Shown in pieces: positions 8,731-21,348 of a stretch of DNA of 64,000 nucleotides (position 1 is the first letter of the stretch; every line of letters begins with the position of its first letter). A program made the position numbers and the translations under genes. The stretch is from Victivallaceae bacterium (lineage in GTDB: Bacteria; Verrucomicrobiota; Lentisphaeria; Victivallales; Victivallaceae): contig JAKSOF010000006.1 of the NCBI GenBank assembly GCA_024405735.1, positions 1 through 64,000 on the forward strand, given 5' to 3'. The notes below the pieces were generated by a model. It ran no database searches and was not told the DNA's origin. It was given only the letters and a program-made list of their open reading frames with translations.

Positions 8731-10518
8731 TTATTTTTGCGGATGGGCGATATTCCACTCGGCGACCAACCGGGCGAAGCGGCTTTGAGGTGCGGTGAGA
8801 AGTTTCCGGCACGCGCCAGACTCCGCAATGTTTCCCCCTTCGAGCAAAAAAACATCGTCGGCGATGGAGGAAATGAAATTCAGATTGTGGTCGATCAGTA
8901 TCATGGTCATCGAGCCTTTCAGCGCGCGCAACGCGGGCAGTAAGTGCGATTGGATCATACTGCCGTCGATGCCGGCGGAGGGTTCGTCGATCAGCAAAAG
9001 TTCCGGTTTCATAAGGGACGCGCGGCTGAGTGCGAGAAGTTTTCTCTGCCCTCCGGAAAGATTGTCCGCGCCTAATGTAAGTTTGTGATCCGCAATGGTT
9101 TCCGGCTTGACGTCAAGCAGTTGCGGCAACCGGAATTTCTGACAGGCGGCGGTGATTTCCGCATCGGAGGCACCGGGGCATTGCAGATGGAAATTGTCGC
9201 GTATCGTCCCCTGAATAAAAAGAGGAAATTGCGAAATCATCACGCAACGGGCGCGGTAATCGCTCTCACGGATGGCGAAAACGTCTTTTCCCGCAACGCG
9301 GATGTTGCCGGATTGCGGCAGATAAAGACGGCAGAGCAGTTTGAAAATCGTCGATTTGCCGCCGCCGGAGGGGGAAACGAGCGCACCGCATTTCCCCGGC
9401 GCGAGAAAGAAAGTGATATGCTTCAAAACATTTTGTCCGGCGTCGTAGGCAAATGAAACATCCCGCAATTCGACGGAGGGGAGATTTCCGGCAGGGAAAG
9501 ACTTCTCCCCGTCGGGAAGCCGGGATTTCCGACGGAAAAGATCGACGATTTTCCGGATATAAGGCTCCTGATCCTTGATGTTGTTGTACATCTGCTGAAG
9601 TTTATTCAAGTGATTGAACATCAACGGGATCAGCAAAATCGCGGCGACGAGGTCGCGGACGACGGGACTTTGCGCGTCGTAGTGGCACAAAACCGAAACG
9701 ACGATCGCGAATTGAAAAAGGAGGATGAGAAGCGACATCGAATAGCGGCTCGCGATATGCAACAGCATCGCCTTGTCCATCCGGAGCGCCAATTGGTGCT
9801 GGATCTTGAACATCGCTTGCATCCGGCGTTTCAAAGCATCCATCAGATGCAGTTCGACGGGTGCGTGCAAGTCGTTGAGCGTTTCATCGTTGATCTCCTT
9901 GCAACTTTCGCGCACTTTGGTATAGGCGCGGGCGATGAGTTTGCCGAAATACCAGGTCAAAAACGGCTGAACCGCCATCCCGCCGACCAAAAGTAGCGTG
10001 AGCCAAAGCGGCAGATGGATGTTGTCAAGCGCGTCAAAGAGAAAGAGCAGTCCGACGGTCAATCCTCCGCCGTAATAAAGCGGAAACGCGATCAATTCCA
10101 GAATCGTGGCGGCGACGCCGCGCCCCGCATTGAGATTCAGCAAGTTTTCGCCGCCGGAATTCTCCTTGAAACAGTCGGGATCGAGCGACAGGATCGCTTC
10201 GTGCGTGAAACAAAAGGCGTCGCGGTCGAGGCGGTCTTTCAGCAAACGGTCTAAAACGTCGTTGACGACGGCAAAGAGAAACTGGACGACGCCGACGCCG
10301 AGAAAGAGCAATGCGGCACGGCGAAAGGTGTGCCATTCGCCGATCGTCCCGGCGAGATTGCCGGTCAATTGCGGCATCGCCATCGCGAGCGTTTCGGCGA
10401 AAAAGCCGAGAAGCAGCGTTACGGCGAGAAGTTTTTTCTGCCGCCGGAAATAAATTTTGGTCAGAAACCAGAGTTGTCTGAAAACCGCGAACTCATACCA
10501 AAAATGATTGGACTTCAT
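8731..10518 (-). CDS. ABC transporter, fused membrane and ATPase domains
   Basis: A half-size ABC exporter of 595 residues. The N-terminal half has the transmembrane helices of a type IV exporter (first around FRRQKKLLAVTLLLGFF, others around residues 80-120, 170-205 and 265-310). The C-terminal ATPase has Walker A SPSGGGKST, signature LSGGQRKLLALSRA, Walker B ELLLIDEPSAG and an H-loop in LIDHNL. There is no N-terminal C39 peptidase domain. The ATG at 10518 overlaps the GT9 gene by 26 bp; an earlier start would overlap it by 167 bp. As the last gene of the radical SAM cluster it may export the modified product; substrate unproven. Confidence 0.88.
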   Translation of the reverse strand: MKSNHFWYEFAVFRQLWFLTKIYFRRQKKLLAVTLLLGFFAETLAMAMPQLTGNLAGTIGEWHTFRRAALLFLGVGVVQFLFAVVNDVLDRLLKDRLDRDAFCFTHEAILSLDPDCFKENSGGENLLNLNAGRGVAATILELIAFPLYYGGGLTVGLLFLFDALDNIHLPLWLTLLLVGGMAVQPFLTWYFGKLIARAYTKVRESCKEINDETLNDLHAPVELHLMDALKRRMQAMFKIQHQLALRMDKAMLLHIASRYSMSLLILLFQFAIVVSVLCHYDAQSPVVRDLVAAILLIPLMFNHLNKLQQMYNNIKDQEPYIRKIVDLFRRKSRLPDGEKSFPAGNLPSVELRDVSFAYDAGQNVLKHITFFLAPGKCGALVSPSGGGKSTIFKLLCRLYLPQSGNIRVAGKDVFAIRESDYRARCVMISQFPLFIQGTIRDNFHLQCPGASDAEITAACQKFRLPQLLDVKPETIADHKLTLGADNLSGGQRKLLALSRASLMKPELLLIDEPSAGIDGSMIQSHLLPALRALKGSMTMILIDHNLNFISSIADDVFLLEGGNIAESGACRKLLTAPQSRFARLVAEWNIAHPQK

Positions 10519-12481
10519 ACCAAACCTTTTCGCAAGTAAAATCTTTCCGGCAATCCATCGCTTTGCATTGACGGCACGTTTCATAGGCGGCACAATCGGC
10601 GTGGATGACCTTGTGCCGTGCTCCGGCATAAGGCGCCCACGTGAGATGCGTGTCCTCAAAACAAATCGTCACACTGCGGCAGTCGCAGGCGCGGACAAGG
10701 TGCATCACGCCGGTATCGTTGCCGATGGCGAAGCCCCGGCGCTGACAGGAGAATGCAAGCGCGGCGATCGCAGTCAACGGCAAATTGACGGCAGTCCTGA
10801 ATCCGGCGGATTCCGCGGCAGAGCGATATAAATCTTTTTCCTGCGGACCAAGTACGAAAAGCGGTTGCTTTCCGGCATTTTTGAGTTTAACGGCAAGCTG
10901 AAGATAGTTTTCGACGCCCCAGTCTTTGAATTTACTGCTTGCGCCGGGGACGATCAATACCGTTTCGCGGGTGAAAAGGTCACGGACAAGGGCAAAATCG
11001 ACGCAAAGCGTGTTTTCGCCGAGCGAGATCGCATCGCAGTGATATTCCGGCTCGACGAGGCGGATCAGCGCCGCGCCCTGCTCGGTGACACTGGTGTAAC
11101 GGCGAAGTTTCACGTCATCCCACATCGTCAAAGGGAGATATTTGGTAAAGACTTTCTTGCAAACGGCTTCGGGGAAGTCGATCTGTTCGTAGCCGTAAGC
11201 CGCATCGTAGCGCATCTTGCGGAGCAATTCGAGAGACGCGGTATCATAGCGGTAATTGAAAACGGCGTCGTATCCGGCGTCGGGAAGCGCAGTATCTTTG
11301 CCTTTGAAGTCGATCACGCGGTCGGCAAAAGCGTACGCTTCAAAAAAAGGTTTCAGCGTTTCCGTTGCAAAAACGGTAATGTTGCAGGGAGCGTAGATTT
11401 TTGCCGCCGCTTCGATGGCATCGATGTTGACGATGGCGTCGCCGATGCGGTCCTGCATCAGAAAGGCGACATTTTTCATTTCCGGCATCGGCAGGGCAAG
11501 TTTTGCAAAAAGTTTGCGGACGACCGCTTCCACGGAAACGTGTCCGATGCAAGTTTTCTGGCAGGTGTTGCACTTTTCTTCACAAGCACAAGGAGGCATG
11601 ACAAGAGAATGGATCGGCTCCTCGTAGGGATACCAATTAAATGCCGAGCCGGTGGCGATAATGTGGATCGTCTTGCGGTGAAATGCCGATGCGAAGTGCA
11701 TGGGACCTGAATCGTTGCCGATGATGAGTTCCGCTTTATTGATAACGTACCCCAGTTGCGCAAAAGGCAGGGTGTCCAGCACAAGACAGCCGCAGTTTTG
11801 CAAATCGGGGACAAGCCGCCGGTCTTGCGGTCCGATGGCGAAAACGGCATCGATACCGGATTTTTTCAGCGTTTTGGCGACGGCGAGATATTTTGTGATT
11901 GGCCAGTATTTATACAAACCGCTGGTGCCGGGGAGGAAAAGAACGAATTTTTGCGGCAGTTTTTCTTTACATGGCTCCTGATGATACGTTTCCGGCGTGA
12001 GCACGGGATAGACAAAACTGAAACCGGGATCGACCAATCGTATCGGCTCCGCCATCTGCTCGCAGACGGTGCGGTATTTCTTGAGCGTGACGTTGTCCCA
12101 GTATTCCTGACTGACCCACTTGTCGAAATGCGTTTTGCACATTTCTTTGGTAATCATGCAACATTCCGAGCCGTAGCGGACTTTACACTTGAGTTTATCC
12201 TGCAACTCCAGATAAACGGGGCGGTACGTAAGATTGAAAATCACATCGAATTCCGTGTCGGGTGGTACAAAGCCGGAAAGATCGAGGTCGCCGTGGACGC
12301 CGCCTTTTAAAACGACTACTTCATCGACCCAGACGGAATTTTTCAGGAGTTCAGCAATCAAGGGGATCGCGAAAACGGTGATGCGGCAGGGCGCATAAAT
12401 TTTTTTGAGGTGTTCAATTTGATTGATACAGCAGATCACGTCGCCGAGCGGCGTGAGGGGAATGTAGGCGATGTTTTTCAT
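10493..12481 (-). CDS. Tandem GT9 (heptosyltransferase-like) glycosyltransferase
   Basis: A 662-residue protein made of two glycosyltransferase family 9 domains. Residues ~1-330 begin MKNIAYIPLTPLGDVI and contain GNDSGPMHFASA; residues ~335-662 begin MKNVAFLMQDRIGDAI and contain GNDTGVMHLVRA. Both halves share IYAPCxITVFA, so this is an internal duplication and fusion. GT9 enzymes use ADP-heptose or related nucleotide sugars and usually build LPS core; here the gene sits between an amidohydrolase and an ABC exporter in a cluster with radical SAM enzymes. A Cys-rich stretch (CACEEKCNTCQKTC) lies near the end of domain 1. Whether it glycosylates a lipid or the cluster peptide is open. Confidence 0.85.
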   Translation of the reverse strand: MKNIAYIPLTPLGDVICCINQIEHLKKIYAPCRITVFAIPLIAELLKNSVWVDEVVVLKGGVHGDLDLSGFVPPDTEFDVIFNLTYRPVYLELQDKLKCKVRYGSECCMITKEMCKTHFDKWVSQEYWDNVTLKKYRTVCEQMAEPIRLVDPGFSFVYPVLTPETYHQEPCKEKLPQKFVLFLPGTSGLYKYWPITKYLAVAKTLKKSGIDAVFAIGPQDRRLVPDLQNCGCLVLDTLPFAQLGYVINKAELIIGNDSGPMHFASAFHRKTIHIIATGSAFNWYPYEEPIHSLVMPPCACEEKCNTCQKTCIGHVSVEAVVRKLFAKLALPMPEMKNVAFLMQDRIGDAIVNIDAIEAAAKIYAPCNITVFATETLKPFFEAYAFADRVIDFKGKDTALPDAGYDAVFNYRYDTASLELLRKMRYDAAYGYEQIDFPEAVCKKVFTKYLPLTMWDDVKLRRYTSVTEQGAALIRLVEPEYHCDAISLGENTLCVDFALVRDLFTRETVLIVPGASSKFKDWGVENYLQLAVKLKNAGKQPLFVLGPQEKDLYRSAAESAGFRTAVNLPLTAIAALAFSCQRRGFAIGNDTGVMHLVRACDCRSVTICFEDTHLTWAPYAGARHKVIHADCAAYETCRQCKAMDCRKDFTCEKVWYEVQSFLV

Positions 12482-12500
12482 TTCATTAAACCTGTATTGG

Positions 12501-12622
12501 GAACCACGAATAAACGCGAATTTACGCGAATGTTTTGTATCAAGTTCCGACTTCGCACACGTTGACTCATGTTTCCCGTTTTCTTTTTTTATTTGTATTC
12601 ATTCGCGTCTATTCGCGGTTCT
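12501..12622. repeat. Inverted-repeat element with CGCGAAT heptamers
   Basis: GAACCACGAATAAACGCGAAT at the left (12501-12521, followed by another TTACGCGAAT) is the inverse of ATTCGCGTCTATTCGCGGTTC at the right (about 12601-12622), with 3 or fewer mismatches and a ~70-bp centre. Such CGAAT-heptamer repeats occur between genes in many bacterial genomes. The right arm supplies the last seven codons and stop of the upstream amidohydrolase gene, so the element is inserted inside the operon. Confidence 0.75.
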
Positions 12623-13360
12623 CAAAAACTCCATAAAATTGCGGTGCAACACCTTTTCCGAGGCGAAGCCTTTCAGCGTCCGCCGTAAATAATTTGTCAG
12701 CGAAACATTGAAAAGGCGTTGCTGAACGGGGATGTCGCTCCCGAAAAGGATCCTCTCCTCTCTTGCTCCGGCATCAATCCATTGCCGGACAACATCCGCA
12801 TGGCAGTAGGCGCAATCGACGAAAACGTTGTCGTAATGATTGACGGCATCGGGGACGGCGGCAGAAGGTTTGCCGTGGGCGAGATCGAATTTCACGGACG
12901 GAAATTTCCGGCAAAAGGGAAGATACGCCGTGATCGGATTTGCCTCGCCGTCATCGTCGCCTCCCGTATGGATTTGCACGGGGAATCGCCGCTCGCGGGC
13001 GATCGACAAAATACGGCGCAATAAATTCGGATGACGGAGCCACGGCGTTTCGCCGCCGTGAAGTTTGAAACCCTCATAAAAATCCGGCAATTTTTCAAGA
13101 TTCCGGTCGCGTTTCAGATATTCGTCGGTGATCCAAAAAAAGGCGTGCGCGCGGTTTCCGGCAAGCCGGATCACTTCCTCCGCTTCGCGGTGCATCACCT
13201 TGCCGTCAAAATCCCAAATGGCATTGGTCGAGGAAAAGATAAACTCCGTTACATTCGCCCGTTTCAGGATGCCGAAAATCCGGCAGGGCGAATAATAGAC
13301 GGGCTTTTCGAATCCCTTGCGGGGAAAGTAACCCACGTGAACGTGCGCGTCGCAGATCAT
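12599..13360 (-). CDS. Amidohydrolase_2-like TIM-barrel hydrolase
   Basis: A 253-residue metal-dependent hydrolase-like protein. The N-terminal metal motif HxH is in CDAHVHVGYF (His5, His7); later ligands are the His in VQIHTGGDD, the His in DLAHGKPS and the Asp in ILFGSDIPVQQ. This pattern fits the Amidohydro_2/TatD-like group, which includes decarboxylases and hydrolases; the substrate cannot be told. Its ATG overlaps the radical SAM gene stop by 4 bp. The C-terminal residues RTANRRE come from an inserted intergenic repeat, so the original terminus was probably slightly different. Confidence 0.8.
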   Translation of the reverse strand: MICDAHVHVGYFPRKGFEKPVYYSPCRIFGILKRANVTEFIFSSTNAIWDFDGKVMHREAEEVIRLAGNRAHAFFWITDEYLKRDRNLEKLPDFYEGFKLHGGETPWLRHPNLLRRILSIARERRFPVQIHTGGDDDGEANPITAYLPFCRKFPSVKFDLAHGKPSAAVPDAVNHYDNVFVDCAYCHADVVRQWIDAGAREERILFGSDIPVQQRLFNVSLTNYLRRTLKGFASEKVLHRNFMEFLRTANRRE

Positions 13361-14820
13361 TTTTTAGCGTGTTCCGCGCGGTACTCGCGTTCCAGTTTCG
13401 CGTGCAATTCATCGACGATCTCGTGGTTGAGGTGCGCGACCTTGCAGAAATGCGGTGCGACCTTGAGCATGTCGCCCGTCTCATTGAAATTGCGGACAAG
13501 ACACATCGAGCAGTAGTTGCGGTCTTCACAATGAATGCACTGCGGAATATCCTTGCCGCGCAGTCCGCGCAAGTATTTGATCTGCGGAGAGTTTTCCCAC
13601 ACGTCGCGGAGACTTTGCTTATAGCAGTTGCCGAGCGGGAAATCCTGAAATCCCGAACAGGCGTAATAATTGCCGTCGGCATTGAGACACATCTTGTCGG
13701 TCCCGGCGCCGCAAAGGTGATCTTCGGCGCGTTCTTCCGGGGGACGCAGTTCATCTTTGACGTCGGGGTTGAAATACTCTTTCATCATCGGCACGTCACG
13801 GAGAATAATGTCTTCCAAGAGACACTTCGTCTGCGGAAGCGTCAGCCGGTTGACGAGATTGCTGTCGTCGTGATCGGCTTTTGCCATCATGATGAAATCG
13901 GTCTGGGCAAACATATGCATCGATTCCGCATACTTCATCACGTCAAGGTATCCCTCGAAATTTTTCCGCATCGTAGGGCAACTGATGGTGACGGGTACGT
14001 TGGCTTTGTAGAGTTTTTCAATAGCGGTTTTGGTTTCCAGCCAAGAGCCTTTGCGTTGCGTGATGCTGTCGTGAATGGCGGGATCCATACTGTAAAGGGA
14101 AACTTGCACGGCGCAATCCATTTCTTTGAGGAGCGCGATTTTGGCATCATCGCAGAGCGTCAGATTGGAAAGCACCGCCACGGTGCAGTCTTTGCTCCGG
14201 ATATAGCGGACGATCTTGTCGAAATCGGGGTGAAGCATACACTCGCCGCCGGAAAGTCCGACATGCAAACCGCCCATCTCGCGGAATTCGTCGATCACTT
14301 CGCAAATTTTTTCATAGGGGAGAAAAAGCGGATTGTATTCCGGTACATAGCAATGGACGCAACGCTCGGTGCACGCTTGGGTGATGTCAAGTTGAATGTC
14401 AAAAAGCGTCGGGTTTTCCTCAAAATACTTTTTGAGGACGGTCTGCGGCATTTTTTCCGCTTCCTCTTGGGTGACGGGAGTGGTGTCGCGTTCCGTTTTG
14501 GGATTCGGCATATCGTAACGGAAAGAGACTTCCTGCGCGTCCAACTCGGCGGGGATATTTCCGGCGAGAACGGCGCCCGCCGCGATCATGGGGGCGATGA
14601 ATTCCTCAAAGTCCGCCGCGATCTCTGCGGGATCGGCGTCCGTATAAACGCCGCAAATGTTTTTGATGATTTCCGCTTTTTCGCGCGGTTCACGGGTGAT
14701 GAAGCGCATAAAAACTTCCGCACCGTCAAACATCTCATCATAGGAATTCAGTTTATGAAAGACGTAGGTGAAATCTCCATAGTTGCGGACGAATGTATTT
14801 TTAGAAAGACGGATCAGCAT
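13357..14820 (-). CDS. Radical SAM/SPASM protein with PqqD-like N-terminus (A)
   Basis: A 487-residue radical SAM enzyme of the peptide-maturase type. Residues ~1-90 look like a PqqD-type peptide-binding (RRE) domain. The AdoMet iron-sulfur motif is CTERCVHC (Cys150, 154, 157), followed by the GGE motif LSGGECMLHP. The SPASM region has about nine cysteines, including HLCGAGTDKMC, YACSGF, CIHCEDRNYCSMC and a final PHFC after NFNETGD, enough for two auxiliary clusters. The ATG at 14820 is inside the end of gene B (7-bp overlap), so the two are translationally coupled. A likely role is thioether or other side-chain crosslinking of the 46-aa peptide at 17426; substrate is inferred from location. 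Confidence 0.85.
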   Translation of the reverse strand: MLIRLSKNTFVRNYGDFTYVFHKLNSYDEMFDGAEVFMRFITREPREKAEIIKNICGVYTDADPAEIAADFEEFIAPMIAAGAVLAGNIPAELDAQEVSFRYDMPNPKTERDTTPVTQEEAEKMPQTVLKKYFEENPTLFDIQLDITQACTERCVHCYVPEYNPLFLPYEKICEVIDEFREMGGLHVGLSGGECMLHPDFDKIVRYIRSKDCTVAVLSNLTLCDDAKIALLKEMDCAVQVSLYSMDPAIHDSITQRKGSWLETKTAIEKLYKANVPVTISCPTMRKNFEGYLDVMKYAESMHMFAQTDFIMMAKADHDDSNLVNRLTLPQTKCLLEDIILRDVPMMKEYFNPDVKDELRPPEERAEDHLCGAGTDKMCLNADGNYYACSGFQDFPLGNCYKQSLRDVWENSPQIKYLRGLRGKDIPQCIHCEDRNYCSMCLVRNFNETGDMLKVAPHFCKVAHLNHEIVDELHAKLEREYRAEHAKK

Positions 14821-16205
14821 GATGATTTTCCCTTGCAAAGTTGATATTTGATTTTCGGTTCCATACAGTATACAGGTCGGTGTTTGTATAAATCACCTGT
14901 TTCATTGAAATTGGCGGCGGGACACGCCATGCAAAAACACCTGTTGGTACATTTGAAACACTCTGGGAAATCCCGCTGTTTAAGATCGCGGAGTTTTTCA
15001 GCAAGCTCACTGTGCCATGCTTCCTGCATCGTGTCGTGATAGCAATTACCGAGGATAAGTCCGCGACCGGCTGTACATGGATAATAATTTCCAGATGCAT
15101 CTAGGCGTAATTTTATTGTGCAGATTTCGCACATTGGATCATCAAGCTGTTTATCAAATTTTCCTGGGCCCCATGGATTGCTGCTTTGGCAATTAGAGAG
15201 ATAGTCGCGCATTTGTGCTGCATTCAAGCCGTGATCCAAATTGCCGCAGTCGTGATTGACTTTTGCCAGCAATGTGGCATTGCTACTGAATTTATAATTC
15301 TGATCCGCACAAAATTCTTCAACCATGTGCCATGAATCAAAATTCTTTTTCAGTACCGGAGTATTGATCTTCATAGGAACATTGTATTTTCGCATTAATT
15401 CAATCCCGCGCACAGTCTCCTTAAAAGAGCCGGGACGGCGGGTAATAGCGTCATGGATTTCCGGGATCATACTATAAACGCTGGTCTGCAGATATTTGAT
15501 GCGTACGTCCGCAAGCGTTTTTACAATTTCTTCATTCAGTAGCGTTAGATTGGATAAAACCGTAATCATTAGATCGCATTTCCGCGCATAGCGCAGGATC
15601 TCGCAAAATTGCGGATGACACATCGGTTCACCGCCGGAAAATTCCACTTCCAATCCGCCCATGGCACGGTATTCGTCAATGACCTTGCAGATGACATCAA
15701 AAGATAATGTGTTGGTTCCATATTCCGGAACGTAGCAATGAACGCAACGTTCTGTACACGTATCGGTTAAATCAATATGTAGAGAAGTAATTTGTTTACG
15801 CGCAATCAGAAAATCATTGATGAGTGAAAAATCATCGTTTTCTTCTTTTTTATCTGCTTTAGCGGGGGATGATCGTGTCATTTCCACTTCGGCTTCCGCT
15901 TCGGTATAATAGCGGAACTCCGGTTCTTGGGCGGTCAACTCTTCAGGTGTGTCGCCAGTCAACACAGCTCCCTGCAGTGATTGGATAAAATCGGCAAAAT
16001 CCGGCGCAATCTCTTCCTGAGTACAATCATAGAATTTGGCAATTTTGGCAACGATAGCTTTATCTGTCTGCGGTTTACAAGAAATGAAACGTAAGAATGG
16101 CTCTGCATCCTGCAAAAAGAATTTTGCATCATTACGTTGATTGACGATCTCCGACATATTGTCAAAGTGCCGGACAAAGGTGTGATTGGATAGTTGTAAA
16201 AACAT
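14814..16205 (-). CDS. Radical SAM/SPASM protein with PqqD-like N-terminus (B)
   Basis: A 463-residue paralogue of the neighbouring gene, with the AdoMet cluster cysteines at the same positions (150, 154, 157 in CTERCVHCYVPEY) and GGE in FSGGEPMCHP. It has the same PqqD-like N-terminal ~85 residues and a SPASM end with CEICTIK, YPCTAGR, CFKCTNRCFCMACPA, NFNETGD and VYC. Base composition is lower in GC than gene A, so the pair may have separate histories rather than being a recent duplication. It starts 3 bp after the AT-rich membrane protein gene ends. Two different maturases suggest either two chemistries or two substrates. Confidence 0.85.
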   Translation of the reverse strand: MFLQLSNHTFVRHFDNMSEIVNQRNDAKFFLQDAEPFLRFISCKPQTDKAIVAKIAKFYDCTQEEIAPDFADFIQSLQGAVLTGDTPEELTAQEPEFRYYTEAEAEVEMTRSSPAKADKKEENDDFSLINDFLIARKQITSLHIDLTDTCTERCVHCYVPEYGTNTLSFDVICKVIDEYRAMGGLEVEFSGGEPMCHPQFCEILRYARKCDLMITVLSNLTLLNEEIVKTLADVRIKYLQTSVYSMIPEIHDAITRRPGSFKETVRGIELMRKYNVPMKINTPVLKKNFDSWHMVEEFCADQNYKFSSNATLLAKVNHDCGNLDHGLNAAQMRDYLSNCQSSNPWGPGKFDKQLDDPMCEICTIKLRLDASGNYYPCTAGRGLILGNCYHDTMQEAWHSELAEKLRDLKQRDFPECFKCTNRCFCMACPAANFNETGDLYKHRPVYCMEPKIKYQLCKGKSSC

Positions 16206-16208
16206 AGT

Positions 16209-16994
16209 TCACCTTTTCCGTGGCTTGAATTTATGATGTGAAAAAAAGTAAGTAACAACACACAACAATATTATAATTACAAGAACCGCAATTGTTCTTT
16301 GTAAAGTGCTATCTGTACTAAAATAAATTCGGAATTCGTTTTCACAACAAAAAATTATATACGGAATGAAAATAAAAAATAAACCAATAAATACAATAAC
16401 GATTCCTATCCAACAATTTACCGTTGATGGTGATGTTGAATCAGCCTTAAAAAAACAGAACCAATGCTTTTTTACAAGCGATTTATCTTTGTGATATGTT
16501 TTGCCGTCTATTGCAATATCATATTCTTTTGCGACATAGTTTTCTTGTAAATATTTAAATTGCAATTCAACCGGTAGAATATTTTCCAAAATATCAATTT
16601 TTCTCTCGTAAATTTCTGTCCAATATTTAGACCCTTTAGACATTGCCAACCAAAGCGTCCCTGATATCATCAGTATACTTCCAAGGAGCAAACTTGTTAA
16701 ACTATCTTTCAGCGTAAATTGTGAAATCGGAGTACTCAGTATAGAATAAAAATAAAAAACTCCACTTCCGGTCAACAGCAAAATAATAAATGCGGAAAGA
16801 AAAATAGAGCGTTGCCACAGTGTGGTAATTTCCAGTTCACGACTATTATATAGTTGTTCCCAGATTTTCCAAGCGACAGCATTGGAATCAATGTGTATTT
16901 CCTTGCCGTCTGTTAAAATATTTACCGAGGAAGATGCATTTTCTGTTTTTGTCTGGACAACAATGCTCTGGTTATTTCCGCAGATATTACCCAT
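16209..16994 (-). CDS. AT-rich four-helix membrane protein
   Basis: Function unknown. The 261-residue product is strikingly AT-rich against its GC-rich neighbours. It has a soluble N-terminus of ~60 residues, hydrophobic segments at about 63-86 (SIFLSAFIILLLTGSG), 98-117, 192-215 and 232-252, and a soluble central stretch with YWTEIYERKIDILENILP. The layout of two membrane helices followed by an amphipathic Trp/Tyr-rich helix ending in a Leu-Pro resembles RipA-type membrane proteins, but this is only a tentative likeness. It is tightly packed (3-bp gaps on both sides) in the radical SAM operon. A self-immunity role would fit the context but is speculation. Confidence 0.7.
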   Translation of the reverse strand: MGNICGNNQSIVVQTKTENASSSVNILTDGKEIHIDSNAVAWKIWEQLYNSRELEITTLWQRSIFLSAFIILLLTGSGVFYFYSILSTPISQFTLKDSLTSLLLGSILMISGTLWLAMSKGSKYWTEIYERKIDILENILPVELQFKYLQENYVAKEYDIAIDGKTYHKDKSLVKKHWFCFFKADSTSPSTVNCWIGIVIVFIGLFFIFIPYIIFCCENEFRIYFSTDSTLQRTIAVLVIIILLCVVTYFFSHHKFKPRKR

Positions 16995-16997
16995 TTT

Positions 16998-17312
16998 TCA
17001 CCACTGATATTTTTTAATTTCAGCAAACCATATCGGATTGAAAACAATCATATTGCCCTTTCGCGATACAACATCTCCGTATTGTTGAGGCGCAGTACTG
17101 GTCATAGAGCGAAGCGTAGTCCTTGGTGAGGCTGCCGGGGCGGGAAGATTGCTCAATCCGACAAGGAATTGCTGTTCCGTCATAGTTTGATTGGGGGCAT
17201 TCAGCAACATAGCAATCGCTTGATGGATAGTAGAGGCAGGATTTGCAGCCCGACTTGCTGTTAATTCCGGGATGTCATATCGTGCAACCGTTTGTTTTTT
17301 TGTATGTGCCAT
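16998..17312 (-). CDS. Small basic protein, possible winged helix
   Basis: Function unknown. The 104-residue product has a Lys/Thr-rich start (MAHTKKQTVARYDIPEL), a helical region STIHQAIAMLLNAPN, a TMTEQQFLVGL segment and an aromatic end (NMIVFNPIWFAEIKKYQW). The order helix, helix-turn-helix-like, then beta strands resembles a small winged-helix domain, which is inference. It has no cysteine, so it is unlikely to be a second Cys-crosslinked substrate, but its leader-like N-terminus keeps that possibility open for another modification. The ATG at 17312 follows AGAGAGAA; an in-frame start upstream at 17396 lies across a hairpin. Confidence 0.6.
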   Translation of the reverse strand: MAHTKKQTVARYDIPELTASRAANPASTIHQAIAMLLNAPNQTMTEQQFLVGLSNLPAPAASPRTTLRSMTSTAPQQYGDVVSRKGNMIVFNPIWFAEIKKYQW

Positions 17313-17347
17313 AACTGTATTCTCTCTGATCGGTTTTTGAGGGAAAT

Positions 17348-17382
17348 CCCCTCTTTCGCCCGTTTTGTGGGAGGAAGAGGGG
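17348..17382 (-). other. Hairpin between peptide gene and operon genes
   Basis: CCCCTCTT (17348-17355) and AAGAGGGG (17375-17382) form an 8-bp stem around a 19-nt loop. There is no T-run after it on the minus strand, so it is not a standard terminator. It sits between the 46-codon gene and the rest of the operon, where a stability or partial-termination hairpin would raise peptide output over enzyme output. Confidence 0.5.
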
Positions 17383-17425
17383 TGTCTTGTCATCAAATCA
17401 ACAACAAGCCTGATGGTTACGTGCC

Positions 17426-17566
17426 TTTAGTCGTGTCGTCCCACTTCACACCTGGAATTATAAGTACACACATAATTATTAGTGTTACTTAGCTGCGACG
17501 GGCAACCGGCGACGTAGGACTTCTTCGCGGAAGATTTCGCGACCATCTGGGGTTTCTTGTAAGCCA
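17426..17566 (-). CDS. 46-aa Cys-containing peptide, candidate RiPP precursor
   Basis: A short gene with an AAAGGAG ribosome site 7 nt before its ATG. The product starts MAYKKPQMVAKSSAKKSYV, then AGCPSQLSNTNNYVC and TYNSRCEVGRHD. The first ~20 residues are Lys/Ala/Ser-rich like a leader; cysteines are at 22, 34 and 40, amid Asn, Tyr, Ser and Thr, typical of crosslinked cores. It lies upstream of, and on the same strand as, two PqqD-domain radical SAM/SPASM enzymes and an ABC exporter. The ribosome site, frame and context all support a real gene; that it is the substrate is inference. A GG-type cleavage site is not obvious, the nearest being AG before Cys22. Confidence 0.75.
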
Positions 17567-17637
17567 TAATAAGGCTCCTTTCCGAGGGATTTTTCCTCAT
17601 TTGACCGCACCGCTCATCGGCACGGTCATGGTTTATT

Positions 17638-17663
17638 TTCCGCCGGCGGAACGACTCCGCCGG
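17638..17663. other. Hairpin upstream of the peptide gene
   Basis: CCGCCGGCGGAA (17639-17650) and CCGCCGG (17657-17663) give a strong GC stem between the Cys-rich exported protein gene and the peptide gene. No T-run follows on the minus strand, so processing or attenuation is more likely than full termination. Confidence 0.4.
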
Positions 17664-17673
17664 ATTACGGACT

Positions 17674-17994
17674 CTACTCTTTGATCAAACGGATATTGCG
17701 CCCCGCCATGCCCGAACGGGTCCACTTGTCCTTTGCGCCGCATTCGGGACAGATGACGACGATGCCGTTTGTCATCGCATGCATATTGAACATCAAATCA
17801 TTCAAGGCGTCCATTTCGCGCAAACCGCTCTTTTGCGTCTTTTCGCCTTCGCGGCAGTTCGCGCAAAAAAAGGTCCGGCACTTGTTACAGCGGTACACGG
17901 CGCAATCGTCCGTTTTTGACCCGCAATTTTTACAATCTCCAGCCGTCAGCAATGCCGTGGCGGAAAAAACGGCAAAAAACATCAGCTTTTTCAT
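17674..17994 (-). CDS. Cys-rich exported protein, zinc-ribbon-like
   Basis: Function unknown. The 106-residue product has a signal peptide (MKKLMFFAVFSATALLTAG) and then CKNC, a spaced Cys, CNKC, CANC and, near the end, CPEC: four CxxC knuckles plus one or two extra cysteines, suggesting two zinc sites or disulfides. Zinc ribbons are rare outside the cytoplasm, so periplasmic location is odd. The ATG at 17994 follows AGAAAGGAAT. It is the first gene after the strong promoter at 18263 and probably shares the transcript of the radical SAM cluster. It might be a metal or redox partner or have no link to the cluster. Confidence 0.7.
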   Translation of the reverse strand: MKKLMFFAVFSATALLTAGDCKNCGSKTDDCAVYRCNKCRTFFCANCREGEKTQKSGLREMDALNDLMFNMHAMTNGIVVICPECGAKDKWTRSGMAGRNIRLIKE

Positions 17995-18035
17995 TTTTTT
18001 TATTCCTTTCTTCCCGAAAAAAGACAACAAAAAAG

Positions 18036-18131
18036 GCATACCCCGTTGCGCATTGCATCTGAGGTACGCCAATACACCCAACACCAAACGCGAACGAGGT
18101 ATGCCGGCACTGCATCGTGCATGCATACCTT
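18036..18131. repeat. Nested inverted repeats (GGTATGC/GCATACC)
   Basis: GGCATACC, GGTACGCC, GGTATGCC and GCATACCT occur in turn at about 18039, 18062, 18099 and 18123, so two hairpins can form, each enclosing a GCAxTGCAT core. A related inverted copy (CACCTCGGATGCAGTGCG) lies at about 18331-18349. In RNA from the minus-strand promoter these would make a structured leader. Confidence 0.5.
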
Positions 18132-18262
18132 CATCGGCTTCGGGCGGTGTCTCGTGAAATTGGCGTTTTCAGATGCACCCTTGTCCGTGAAGACAGGCTA
18201 TTTAATTGTCAAATCCAACTTTTTCCTGTGAAAAAATCCTCCGAAATTCAAGATTCTTTCAC

Positions 18263-18291
18263 AATATAGCCGGAATCCGGTCAATTGTCAA
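18263..18291 (-). promoter_or_regulatory. Promoter of the radical SAM cluster
   Basis: Minus-strand TTGACA (18286-18291) and TATATT (18263-18268) with a 17-bp spacer: the only protein-gene promoter in the window with a perfect -35 box. It precedes a ~260-nt leader and then the Cys-rich protein, the 46-aa peptide and the enzyme genes. Confidence 0.75.
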
Positions 18292-18544: not shown

Positions 18545-19696
18545 ATGAAACGGGGATTACAAGGGAGTTTCGAAACCATCAGTACTGTGGGAGAAACGGT
18601 GCGGGCGTTCGTGCCGGCTCCGTTGCCGCCTTGTCCCGCGTTGGCGATGGATGGCGCGCTGCAGAATAAAATGGAGCGCGCGGTTTTTGCGCTCGGCCGC
18701 TTGGACGGGATGACGAATTTATTGCCTGATCCCGCGATCTTCCTTTATATGTTCATCCGCAAGGAAGCCGTATTGTCTTCGATGATCGAGGGAACGCAGT
18801 CCTCTCTCTCCGATCTCCTGCTTTTTGAGGCGGACGGAGCCCCCGGAGTTCCGGTTTGTGATGTCCAGGCGGTCAGCAGTTATGTGCACGCCATTGAATA
18901 TGGCATGGAGCGTATAGCCGGAGGCTTTCCGCTTTCACTGCGTCTCTTAAAGGAAATCCACGCCGTTTTGCTTGAGCACGGCAGAGGGAGCGGAAAAAAT
19001 CCGGGGGAATTCCGCCGCAGTCAGAATTGGATCGGCGGCACGCGTCCGGGAAATGCCGCTTTTGTCCCGCCGCCGCCGGAAAAGATGAATGAGGCGATCT
19101 GTCAACTGGAGCTTTTTCTTCATCAGTCGGAAATGCCGGTATTGATCAAAGCGGCTCTCGGGCATTTGCAATTTGAAACCATCCATCCTTTTCTGGACGG
19201 CAACGGTCGTATCGGGCGACTGATGATTTCATTGCTTTTGTGCAACGCCGGCATATTGCATCAGCCGTTGCTTTATTTGAGTTATTACTTTAAAAAACAC
19301 CGTGCCGCGTATTACGAATTACTGAATTCCACCAGGGAAAACGGCGATTGGGAGCGTTGGCTTGATTTCTTTTTTGATGCGGTCGCGGAAACGGCGACGC
19401 AAAGTTGCACGATCATTCAGCAGTTGAATCGGCAAATGGAAATGGACCGCGCCGCCATTGCCCGGATCGGAAAAGCCCGGACGACGGTGCTCGCCGTCCA
19501 TCAGGCGATGTTGCGGCATCCGATCGCCGACATCAGGAAGATCCGGGATTTGACGGGATTTTCCATCGCGACCGTTGGCAGTGCCGTGCGGCGGTTGTGT
19601 GAATTGTCGATATTGGAGGAAATGACGAAAAATAAACGCAATCGCCTTTTCTGTTACCGCAAATATCTGAAAACCTTAACCCCCGGGGAGTTTTGA
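18545..19696 (+). CDS. Fic-domain protein (class II)
   Basis: Fic proteins transfer AMP (or related groups) to hydroxyl side chains of target proteins. The 383-residue product has the full active motif HPFLDGNGRIGR (214-225) with catalytic His214, and an N-terminal inhibitory helix SSMIEG (78-83, SxxxEG), which defines class II, where the glutamate blocks ATP binding. The N-terminus (Fic_N-like) and a C-terminal winged-helix (about 310-375, with IADIRKIRDLTGFSIATVGSAVRRL) complete the usual layout. It ends 3 bp before the ECF sigma gene, so the three downstream signalling genes are probably cotranscribed. No antitoxin-like partner is next to it. Confidence 0.9.
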   Translation: MKRGLQGSFETISTVGETVRAFVPAPLPPCPALAMDGALQNKMERAVFALGRLDGMTNLLPDPAIFLYMFIRKEAVLSSMIEGTQSSLSDLLLFEADGAPGVPVCDVQAVSSYVHAIEYGMERIAGGFPLSLRLLKEIHAVLLEHGRGSGKNPGEFRRSQNWIGGTRPGNAAFVPPPPEKMNEAICQLELFLHQSEMPVLIKAALGHLQFETIHPFLDGNGRIGRLMISLLLCNAGILHQPLLYLSYYFKKHRAAYYELLNSTRENGDWERWLDFFFDAVAETATQSCTIIQQLNRQMEMDRAAIARIGKARTTVLAVHQAMLRHPIADIRKIRDLTGFSIATVGSAVRRLCELSILEEMTKNKRNRLFCYRKYLKTLTPGEF

Positions 19697-19699
19697 TGT

Positions 19700-20302
19700 A
19701 TGGGCGTTTACCCTGAAACCGACCGCACGATGCTGGAGCGCATTATTTCCGGCAACGACATCGCGTGGCAGGATTTTTATGATACGTATGCCGGCGTCGT
19801 CGAAGCGATCTGCCGCGCTTCGGGTGTGCCGGCAAGCGCCGTCGACGACATCGTTCAGGAAGCGATGCGCCGCTTTGCCGACCGTTCGTCGCACTTTATT
19901 TATATGCCCGAGCGCGCGAAGTTCCGCACCTATTTCAACCGGATCGTTCACGGCGCGATCGCCGATTTTTTCCGCAATGAAGCCAAGGGGATCGTCCCCT
20001 GCGGCGAAATTCCCGACGTCGCCGACGATTCCCTCGCTGACGCCGAGCTGGAGATCTGGCGCCGCGCCGTGCTCGACGACGCGCTGGGGGAGTTGGCAAA
20101 ACGTGTCAGCGGCAAAAATTATCTCGCCTTTACGATGAGCGTACTGGAAGATCATCCGATTTCCGAAACGGCGGAATTTCTCGGCATTTCCACCGCGCAA
20201 GTCCATCTCGCCCGCAGCCGTTGCGCGGCGCATCTGCACAAGATCATTGCCGGTTGCAATGAAGCCGATCCCGAACTTCATCTGGTTTATCCCGGGAAAT
20301 AG
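19700..20302 (+). CDS. ECF-type RNA polymerase sigma factor
   Basis: A 200-residue sigma-70 family protein with region 2 (about 20-90, including VDDIVQEAMRRFADR and FRTYFNRIVHGAIADFFR) and region 4 (about 135-185, with helix-turn-helix AEFLGISTAQVHLARSRC). Its region 2 is atypical, as often seen in PVC ECF groups. The ATG follows the fic stop by 3 bp and a Ser/Thr kinase gene starts 2 bp after it. In several ECF groups the partner is a Ser/Thr kinase rather than an anti-sigma factor; no anti-sigma gene is present here, so control by phosphorylation is a reasonable inference. Confidence 0.85.
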   Translation: MGVYPETDRTMLERIISGNDIAWQDFYDTYAGVVEAICRASGVPASAVDDIVQEAMRRFADRSSHFIYMPERAKFRTYFNRIVHGAIADFFRNEAKGIVPCGEIPDVADDSLADAELEIWRRAVLDDALGELAKRVSGKNYLAFTMSVLEDHPISETAEFLGISTAQVHLARSRCAAHLHKIIAGCNEADPELHLVYPGK

Positions 20303-20304
20303 CG

Positions 20305-21348
20305 ATGTTTCAAGTCGGCGACATCCTCGATCAGTACCGTTTGACGGCGGAGATCGGTATCGGTTCCTACGGCTGTGTTTTCTCCGCTGAAAACATGGTG
20401 ACGCATCAATGTTTCGCGCTGAAAATCGTGCCGCTTGTCGGCAATGCCGGACGCCGGGAAATGCACGCGCTGGAGCTTTACCGGGATCTCGATCACCCGA
20501 ATTTACTGAAAATCCATCACGTCGGGACGACGGCAGATTTCCTCTACTACACGATGGATCTCGCCGACGGGAAGCTCGCGGAGCAGAAACTTGCCGCTCC
20601 CGCTTTGCTTGAAGCGGCGGCAAAAATCGCCGATGCGTTGTCGGTGCTTCACGGCGCGGGATTGCTTCACCGCGACATCAAGCCCGACAATCTGCTCTGG
20701 CGGCGCGGTGAACCGCTTCTCGGCGATCTCGGACTGCTCACGACCGAATCACAGGCGACTTTTACCGGGACCGCCGGATTTCTTTCGCCCCGCATTTTGA
20801 ATGCGGCACTGCCGCCGGACGAAACGACCGATCTCTATGCTTTCGCCAAAAGTTTTTACTGCCTTTTGTCCGGCAATCCGCCGCGCCGCTATCCCCGTTA
20901 TCAGGGGGAAATGTCGCCGGAAGCTTCGCGTTTGCTCCGGATGGCTCTTTTTGTCTGCGACGGTGAAAAAGTTTTGTCCACCGCAAGCGAAGTCCGCGAT
21001 TTTCTGCTTCAGGGCAGGGCGAAGCGCATCGTTCCCCGCCGGATCCTCCTGGGGCGTGCTTGGAAAACCGCAGTCGCTCTTCTGTTTGCTGTCGGCGTGG
21101 CAACGGGGGCGTATTTCGGGATATACCGCCCGTTGAAAGCGCGTTCTTTGCGATTGCAGGAGGAGCAGAAACGCCTCGCGGCGCAGGCGGAATTCGACCG
21201 CTGGATGGCGCGGAAAAAAGCCGCCCGGGAGTATGCGCTGAAAAAAATTCCGCTCCGTCGCCACTCCGACGGCTCCACCTATACCAGCATGGATGACGTG
21301 ATCGAACGCAGTCGCCTTGAGCGCGAGTATCTTGAAAAAAATCCGTAA
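20305..21348 (+). CDS. Transmembrane Ser/Thr protein kinase
   Basis: A 347-residue Hanks-type kinase with a glycine loop GIGSYG (18-23), ATP-binding Lys40, helix-C Glu, HRDIKPDN (122-129) and the metal-binding DLG (141-143, the DFG equivalent), so it should be active. One membrane helix (about 252-274) separates the cytoplasmic kinase from a ~70-residue charged, probably coiled-coil tail (LRLQEEQKRLAAQAEF) that lacks a known sensor domain. It starts 2 bp after the ECF sigma gene, and the pair is a likely sensor-regulator unit. Confidence 0.9.
   Translation: MFQVGDILDQYRLTAEIGIGSYGCVFSAENMVTHQCFALKIVPLVGNAGRREMHALELYRDLDHPNLLKIHHVGTTADFLYYTMDLADGKLAEQKLAAPALLEAAAKIADALSVLHGAGLLHRDIKPDNLLWRRGEPLLGDLGLLTTESQATFTGTAGFLSPRILNAALPPDETTDLYAFAKSFYCLLSGNPPRRYPRYQGEMSPEASRLLRMALFVCDGEKVLSTASEVRDFLLQGRAKRIVPRRILLGRAWKTAVALLFAVGVATGAYFGIYRPLKARSLRLQEEQKRLAAQAEFDRWMARKKAAREYALKKIPLRRHSDGSTYTSMDDVIERSRLEREYLEKNP

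What the first reader, a model, noticed from the sequence alone, without database searches (positions are those of the whole stretch)
8731..18291. Candidate undescribed RiPP cluster
On one strand, with gaps or overlaps of only a few bases, lie an uncalled 46-aa Cys peptide, two PqqD-domain radical SAM/SPASM enzymes, an amidohydrolase, a double GT9 glycosyltransferase and an ABC exporter, all behind one strong promoter. Radical SAM/SPASM enzymes with PqqD-like domains are known to modify small peptides, and exporters commonly follow them. Two maturases plus a glycosyltransferase is an unusual combination that I cannot match to a named class (established knowledge for the families; the cluster reading is inference).
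Basis: partly seen in the sequence, partly recalled or inferred. Interest (0 to 1): 0.88.

Follow-up and report, generated by a model that had tools for sequence, protein, structure and literature searches.

The report
Unnamed radical-SAM peptide cluster, widely distributed
This is a real gene cluster for making a small, heavily modified cysteine peptide; its core of a peptide, a radical-SAM enzyme and an amidohydrolase recurs in about ten bacterial phyla, matches no family in the curated libraries searched, and here carries a second radical-SAM enzyme that goes with a different cysteine pattern in the peptide.

Summary
The cluster is real. The 46-aa ORF (17427-17567, -) belongs to a conserved precursor family, M.Y[KQSR]KP...A.[SN].....[FY].AGC, found by exact pattern in 62 genome stretches; about 58 are genuine, in some ten phyla, including Fibrobacter intestinalis ATCC 43854. 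The leader is nearly invariant (92-98% identity), the core hypervariable (21-52%). The conserved unit is precursor + radical SAM/SPASM maturase with an RRE-like N-terminus + metal-dependent amidohydrolase (present in 43 of 46 testable loci). No NCBIfam or Pfam model covers the peptide or reaches cut-off on the maturases; FibroRumin was tested and not met.

The double GT9 and ABC exporter are lineage additions. A duplicated, faster-evolving second maturase (rSAM1) goes with loss of the core's C-terminal CxxC (19/21 versus 1/28), though this is only one or two evolutionary events.

Corrections: two ORFs (104 aa; an 8xMP membrane protein) sit between precursor and rSAM1; two gaps exceed 100 nt; a terminator-like hairpin separates the "strong promoter" from the cluster. 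New: the precursor is preceded by a covarying RNA leader, and an ECF sigma/Ser-Thr kinase pair neighbours most same-genus cassettes. Product chemistry and biological role are unknown.

The parts
17427..17567 (-). Precursor peptide, 46 aa: MAYKKPQMVAKSSAKKSYVAGCPSQLSNTNNYVCTYNSRCEVGRHD; conserved leader up to AGC, variable Cys core after it
17502..17561 (-). Leader motif Y-K-K-P...A-K-S...Y-V-A-G-C that defines the family (pattern used for the scan)
17565..17671 (-). Structured 5' leader of the precursor: UCCG-UAAU-[8-bp hairpin]-CGGA, a second long hairpin, a GAGG/CCTC hairpin, then the ribosome-binding site; compensatory changes among relatives
16998..17312 (-). 104-aa ORF of unknown function in the slot between precursor and rSAM1; homologue only in the same-genus locus L034
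16209..16994 (-). 8xMP-family (PF24838) membrane protein, 261 aa, in the same slot; homologue in the same slot of L152
14814..16205 (-). rSAM1: second, lineage-specific radical SAM/SPASM maturase with RRE-like N-terminus
13357..14820 (-). rSAM2: radical SAM/SPASM maturase, orthologous to the single maturase of other phyla
12599..13360 (-). Amidohydro_2 / ACMSD-fold metal-dependent hydrolase, the conserved companion
10493..12481 (-). Double GT9 glycosyltransferase
8731..10518 (-). ABC permease/ATPase (MsbA/CydC-like, too short for an N-terminal C39 peptidase), overlapping the end of the GT9 gene
19700..20302 (+). ECF-type sigma factor; closest same-genus homologues sit beside RiPP cassettes
20305..21348 (+). 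Ser/Thr protein kinase with one predicted transmembrane segment, paired with the sigma factor

Best explanation
A RiPP biosynthetic operon of a so far unnamed radical-SAM family. The ribosome makes a peptide of about 46 aa. Its leader (YKKPxxxAKS...) is bound by the RRE-like N-terminal domain of the radical SAM/SPASM enzymes (inferred from family features and the structure model). rSAM2, the maturase shared by all phyla, modifies the core around the invariant AGC cysteine and the later cysteines, most likely forming Cys-based crosslinks as in sactipeptides and ranthipeptides (inferred; chemistry not shown). rSAM1, a duplicate found only in Lentisphaerota, Kiritimatiellota and Verrucomicrobiota loci, adds a second modification, and the core has changed with it from ...CxxC[ED]R to spacings such as C-x5/6-C (association shown; causality inferred). 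The amidohydrolase then acts on the modified peptide, most likely hydrolysing a peptide bond to remove the leader, because it is the only conserved hydrolase and the exporter is too short to carry a C39 peptidase (inferred; about 40%). In the window's lineage the double GT9 probably glycosylates the product and the ABC protein exports it (inferred). The product is probably an antagonistic or signalling peptide: the core is hypervariable, the cassette is patchy (7 of 34 genomes of the genus), and it sits beside an ECF sigma/kinase pair.
For: Precursor family in about ten phyla; maturase directly downstream at nearly all loci; amidohydrolase in 43 of 46 testable loci, usually within about 50 nt, with invariant D4, H6, H8, K99, H101, H131, H162, D209 and an ACMSD/amidohydrolase_2 fold (pLDDT 93.9; 3cjp Z 21.6, rmsd 2.8, 218 aligned). 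rSAM1 model (pLDDT 89.5) aligns with SuiB over residues 3-451 including the N-terminal domain (Z 25.5, rmsd 5.5, 374 aligned), and with CteB and SkfB. All SPASM cysteines are kept. Leader 92-98% identical, core 21-52%. rSAM count versus C-terminal CxxC: 27/28 with one rSAM, 2/21 with two, Fisher 2e-10. rSAM1 and rSAM2 form separate supported groups. No other recurrent neighbour family in a broad comparison.
Against: No product has been observed. The two-rSAM/core association rests on one or two events in the tree, so the Fisher value overstates it. The amidohydrolase fold also holds decarboxylases, so peptide-bond hydrolysis is a guess. GT9 and ABC are absent from most loci, so they may serve something else. 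Many loci carry unrelated genes, including a nuclease, in the slot after the precursor, which a simple antimicrobial-peptide model does not predict. Most sequences are metagenome-assembled and taxon labels may be wrong.
Confidence: 0.85

Rival explanations
1. The cassette is a biological-conflict (for example anti-phage) module: the maturated peptide keeps in check, senses for, or assists an exchangeable effector encoded in the slot between precursor and maturase.
For: Slot genes are mutually unrelated between otherwise near-identical cassettes. Akkermansia-type cassettes L156 and L157 carry a PDDEXK_4 nuclease (E 1.7e-20) that L042 and L158 lack. Window and L152 carry an 8xMP membrane protein. 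One cassette (L034) lies a few kb from type I-C Cas genes. Distribution is patchy.
Against: None of the seven proteins scanned, the window's two among them, matches PADLOC-DB. Many cassettes have an empty slot. The SIR2-like guess for the L160 protein was not confirmed by Pfam, PADLOC or PDB sequences. No match to the precursor pattern in viral contigs.
Confidence: 0.1
2. Bacteriocin-type antagonism with slot genes as immunity proteins: hypervariable core and hypervariable adjacent gene evolve as a pair.
For: Core and slot both vary while leader and maturases do not; several slot proteins are small or membrane-spanning; window's lineage has an ABC exporter.
Against: Slot genes of nuclease type or of about 580 aa do not look like immunity proteins; cassettes with an empty slot exist; a conserved exporter is missing from most loci.
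Confidence: 0.4
3. The modified peptide is a precursor of a small cofactor or redox carrier (as for PQQ or mycofactocin), with the amidohydrolase releasing it; not an antimicrobial.
For: In single-maturase loci the end of the core is fairly constant (AGCP...CxxC[ED]R[TAS]); no conserved exporter; the maturases also resemble PqqE and mycofactocin models at sub-threshold level.
Against: Core residues and lengths vary strongly even within Fibrobacter, which a fixed cofactor would not allow; no partner dehydrogenase recurs.
Confidence: 0.12
4. The GT9-ABC part belongs to cell-envelope glycan export and is only co-located with the RiPP genes.
For: GT9 family is typical of LPS heptosyltransferases; ABC resembles MsbA/CydC; both are absent from most cassettes.
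Against: GT9 follows the maturases or the amidohydrolase in at least seven loci (window, L034, L035, L036, L039, L152, L163) and also lies beside the L040 maturase; in L034 and L036 it overlaps the amidohydrolase stop, and GT9 and ABC overlap.
Confidence: 0.25

Closest known systems
Sactipeptide and ranthipeptide systems (SkfB, AlbA, SuiB, CteB, PapB maturases)
   Same: RRE-like N-terminus + radical SAM + SPASM with two auxiliary-cluster cysteine sets; short Cys precursor encoded just upstream; SkfB is the closest solved sequence (E 8.7e-29), SuiB, CteB and SkfB among the closest folds
   Different: No equivalog model reaches its cut-off; precursor motif is unlike any NCBIfam or Pfam family; constant amidohydrolase companion; linkage chemistry unknown
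FibroRumin radical SAM system (TIGR04136)
   Same: Radical SAM/SPASM peptide system named after Fibrobacter (from memory); the present family is also common in Fibrobacter
   Different: TIGR04136 finds nothing in the window's genome or three related genomes that carry this cassette and is not among the best models for the Fibrobacter maturase next to the present peptide
Bottromycin amidohydrolase PurAH/BotAH
   Same: A metal-dependent amidohydrolase in a RiPP pathway, there removing the follower peptide (PMC10885120)
   Different: Different pathway without SPASM maturases of this kind; here the enzyme has the Amidohydro_2/ACMSD-type fold and its substrate is unknown
[quoted passage not shown]
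   Same: Two radical SAM enzymes in one sactipeptide pathway (PMC8188230)
   Different: Precursor and core unrelated by motif; here the two maturases are clearly separate clades with the second one added to an ancestral single-maturase system
GT9 heptosyltransferases
   Same: Two Glyco_transf_9 domains; 3tov is the only solved sequence relative found
   Different: Fused double domain, encoded within a RiPP cassette; acceptor unknown

Membership tests
RiPP (broad sense) | Short gene-encoded precursor with conserved leader and variable core | tested here: met
RiPP (broad sense) | Modifying enzymes encoded with the precursor across independent lineages | tested here: met
RiPP (broad sense) | A post-translationally modified peptide product | not testable with these tools
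   needs expression and mass spectrometry
Radical SAM/SPASM peptide maturases | CxxxCxxC motif and SPASM cysteines | tested here: met
Radical SAM/SPASM peptide maturases | N-terminal RRE (PqqD-like) domain | tested here: met
   Pfam PqqD below cut-off, but the rSAM1 model aligns with SuiB from residue 3 onward; only rSAM1 was modelled
Sactipeptides / ranthipeptides | Cys thioether to alpha, beta or gamma carbon | not testable with these tools
   chemistry not visible in sequence
Sactipeptides / ranthipeptides | Maturase above cut-off of a curated sactipeptide or ranthipeptide model (AlbA, SkfB, StsB, PapB) | tested here: not met
   scores 49-74 bits against cut-offs 300-850
FibroRumin (TIGR04136) | Maturase over the TIGR04136 cut-off (400 bits) | tested here: not met
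   0 of 4 genomes; Fibrobacter maturase not listed
Bottromycin-type RiPP amidohydrolase | Cleaves a precursor peptide bond | not testable with these tools
   fold and metal ligands only
Amidohydrolase superfamily, Amidohydro_2 | TIM barrel with HxH, H, H, D metal ligands | tested here: met
GT9 glycosyltransferases | Glyco_transf_9 domain above cut-off | tested here: met
   two domains, 127.7 bits
Known anti-phage defence systems | Slot proteins match PADLOC-DB | tested here: not met
   0 of 7 proteins

The most novel reading that the evidence does not exclude
A widespread peptide-based conflict system: a radical-SAM-matured, hypervariable peptide is paired with an exchangeable effector gene (nuclease, membrane protein and others) inserted between precursor and maturase, under an ECF sigma/Ser-Thr kinase switch, with an amidohydrolase releasing the active peptide and a recruited second maturase rewiring the crosslink pattern.
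Probability: 0.1. Interest if true: 0.87.

Novelty: new variant of a known kind. Interest (0 to 1): 0.64.

Why it matters
A radical-SAM peptide family spread over about ten phyla, present in a type-strain genome (Fibrobacter intestinalis ATCC 43854) yet matched by no model in NCBIfam or Pfam, is a direct entry to new peptide chemistry from gut, rumen and sediment bacteria. It pairs every maturase with a possible new type of RiPP amidohydrolase. It also offers a natural experiment: one ancestral maturase versus a pair, with the core's cysteine spacing changed to match, which makes it testable how a second radical SAM enzyme is recruited to alter a product.

Tried and rejected
FibroRumin: rejected by TIGR04136. 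Named NCBIfam target peptides: 18 precursors scanned, only stray weak hits; Pfam likewise. Phage origin: no precursor pattern in viral contigs; in phage records only remote rSAM similarity of 22-27%. Known defence genes in the slot: PADLOC and PHROGs gave none. SIR2 identity of the 583-aa L160 slot protein: suggested by eye, not confirmed by Pfam, PADLOC or PDB sequence search, so not claimed. Known RNA family upstream: Rfam none. A conserved exporter or peptidase across the family: not found. Three pattern hits (L080, L091, L106) lack a start codon or a proper core and are treated as chance. Open-literature searches returned no description of the motif or cassette; subscription papers such as the Clark and Seyedsayamdost 2022 atlas of radical-SAM RiPPs (cited in PMC10885120) could not be read, so an earlier listing of some members cannot be excluded. 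My first sequence alignment of the 5' leaders misplaced the hairpins; single-sequence folds and hand-paired stems were used instead.
Full report
What is there. All genes of the finding lie on the minus strand between 17567 and 8731. They are a 46-aa peptide (17427-17567), radical SAM/SPASM proteins rSAM1 (14814-16205) and rSAM2 (13357-14820), an Amidohydro_2 protein (12599-13360), a 662-aa double GT9 protein (10493-12481) and an ABC permease/ATPase (8731-10518). rSAM1/rSAM2, rSAM2/amidohydrolase and GT9/ABC overlap; gaps of 111 and 117 nt follow the peptide and the amidohydrolase.

The peptide is a gene. A search of 289 genomes of the phylum with rSAM1 gave 14 with relatives, often as tandem pairs. 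Short ORFs upstream of them share Y-K-K-P...A-K-S...[FY]-x-A-G-C with the window peptide. That motif as an IUPAC pattern never occurs in shuffles of the window. In one genome per species it hits 62 stretches, of which about 58 are intact small ORFs. By record titles they come from Lentisphaerota, Kiritimatiellota, Verrucomicrobiota (Akkermansia-labelled MAGs), Fibrobacterota, Spirochaetota, Bacteroidota, Synergistota, Bacillota, Pseudomonadota and Hydrogenedentota. Most are metagenome bins, so some labels may be wrong; Fibrobacter intestinalis ATCC 43854 carries a precursor and a family maturase on two contigs. Viral contigs gave none. Leader codon differences are 64% synonymous against 21% for random changes. 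Leaders are 92-98% identical and cores 21-52%, while first maturases are 83-88% identical within Fibrobacter, Akkermansia-type and window-genus sets. Conserved leader with hypervariable core is the signature of a RiPP precursor.

The conserved unit. An all-against-all comparison of genes around 50-odd precursors found two broadly recurrent families: the radical SAM/SPASM maturase (54 loci) and the amidohydrolase (33 loci). With longer flanks the amidohydrolase is present in 43 of 46 loci that have enough sequence, usually within about 50 nt of the maturase; L046, L164 and L173 lack it. The GT9 follows the maturases or the amidohydrolase in the window, L034-L036, L039, L152 and L163 and also lies beside the L040 maturase. 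The ABC protein is in this position only in the window's close relatives.

Enzymes. Both maturases of the window have CTERCVHC and the SPASM cysteines C-C-CxxCx5CxxC-C, conserved in the family. The rSAM1 model (mean pLDDT 89.5) aligns with SuiB over residues 3-451, N-terminal domain included (Z 25.5, rmsd 5.5, 374 residues), and with CteB, SkfB and PqqE. SkfB is the closest solved sequence (E 8.7e-29). NCBIfam models hit only far below cut-off. The amidohydrolase keeps D4, H6, H8, K99, H101, H131, H162 and D209 in all 22 aligned sequences. Its model (pLDDT 93.9) has the ACMSD/amidohydrolase_2 fold (3cjp Z 21.6, rmsd 2.8, 218 aligned). That fold holds hydrolases and decarboxylases, so its reaction is open. 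A RiPP amidohydrolase that cuts its peptide is known from bottromycin (PMC10885120), and the ABC protein is too short to carry a C39 peptidase, so leader removal is my first guess, not a result.

Two maturases and a changed core. In the maturase tree, first-position enzymes (rSAM1) form one group of 17. All second-position enzymes and all single ones form the other; several long branches make details unsure. Between the window and L034, rSAM1 is 83% identical and rSAM2 93%. With one maturase the core ends in CxxC in 27 of 28 loci; with two, in 2 of 21 (Fisher 2e-10). Because the two-maturase state arose once or twice, this is a strong association but weak evidence of cause. The simplest reading is that rSAM2 is ancestral and rSAM1 was added to make a second modification on a re-spaced core.

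Control region. The site TTGACA-17-TATATT at 18291-18263 exists. About 160 nt downstream a long hairpin with a U-run (about 18105-18029; -56.5 kcal/mol for the stretch, z -4.4) and a 106-aa ORF with no homologue in related loci separate it from the peptide. Directly before the peptide (17565-17671) lies a structured leader. In all six Lentisphaerae sequences the minimum-energy fold begins with the same element, UCCG, four unpaired bases, a hairpin of 8-10 pairs, CGGA (L034 is shifted by two bases), although the stem letters differ. By hand pairing, 7 of the 8 shared H1 stem pairs vary between sequences while staying paired; for H2 the arms I listed were not verified by the script in WIN and L035, so there the folds are the evidence. 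A scan expects 0.006 such elements per 260 bases. A covariance model finds one strong copy in each of the window's genome, G031, G092 and G162, always before the precursor, and copies before the precursors of G322; the model was built from these sequences, so the informative part is that no other strong copy exists. Rfam has no match. A precursor promoter just upstream of 17671 is therefore likelier than the distant one.

Regulatory neighbours. The ECF sigma factor (19700-20302) and Ser/Thr kinase (20305-21348) near the window's cassette have their closest homologues beside the cassettes in G092 (both cassettes), G162 and G141, although these genomes hold two to seven such sigma factors each; only G031 has none nearby. 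From those counts, chance adjacency within 10 kb at five of six cassettes is of the order of 1e-7 (my rough estimate; the genomes are related). Weaker kinase similarity also occurs near L153, L155, L156, L157, L158 and L160.

The slot. Between precursor and first maturase, near-identical cassettes differ in content: nothing (L042, L158), a PDDEXK_4 nuclease (L156, L157; E 1.7e-20), 8xMP membrane proteins (window, L152), a further radical SAM protein (L147), or unknown ORFs. None of the seven proteins tested is in PADLOC-DB. These could be immunity genes, effectors or passengers. This is the most interesting loose end.

Verdict. As radical-SAM RiPPs are a known kind, I file it as a new variant of that kind. 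Steps shown: gene family, gene order, conserved catalytic residues, folds by prediction, rSAM/core association, RNA leader. Steps inferred: leader binding, crosslink chemistry, amidohydrolase reaction, glycosylation, export, biological role.

Noticed in passing
window 17565-17671 (-); L034 7600-7705; L035 6930-7039; L036 8801-8905; L151 5837-5915; L152 11854-11931: Covarying multi-hairpin RNA leader before the precursor gene, one strong copy per genome (two cassettes in G322), no Rfam match.
   Followed up: partly
window 19700-21348 (+); near the cassettes L035, L036, L041, L043: ECF sigma factor plus Ser/Thr kinase pair whose nearest same-genus homologues sit beside RiPP cassettes; possible dedicated switch.
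   Followed up: partly
window about 18105-18029 (-): Very stable terminator-like hairpin with U-run downstream of the promoter-like site at 18291; possible attenuator or small RNA.
   Followed up: no
slot between precursor and rSAM in L156, L157, L152, L147, L142, L145, L160: Non-homologous cargo genes (PDDEXK_4 nuclease, 8xMP, extra radical SAM, unknown proteins) in otherwise similar cassettes.
   Followed up: partly
window 12482-12598 (-): 117-bp stretch between amidohydrolase and GT9, absent in L034 and L036 where the genes overlap; 34-36 bp of it recur three times elsewhere in the genome.
   Followed up: partly
L034 1241-3837: Type I-C Cas genes (Csd1, Cas7) a few kb upstream of a same-genus cassette.
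   Followed up: no
L144 5023-5154: Fibrobacteraceae MAG with a precursor but no maturase within 7.6 kb downstream and only a distant rSAM in the genome; orphan or incomplete assembly.
   Followed up: partly
window ABC protein, ATP-binding loop SPSGGGKST: First glycine of the Walker A motif is Ser in the window protein.
   Followed up: no
window 18545-19696 (+): Fic-family protein (Fic_N + Fic) next to the upstream end of the cluster.
   Followed up: no
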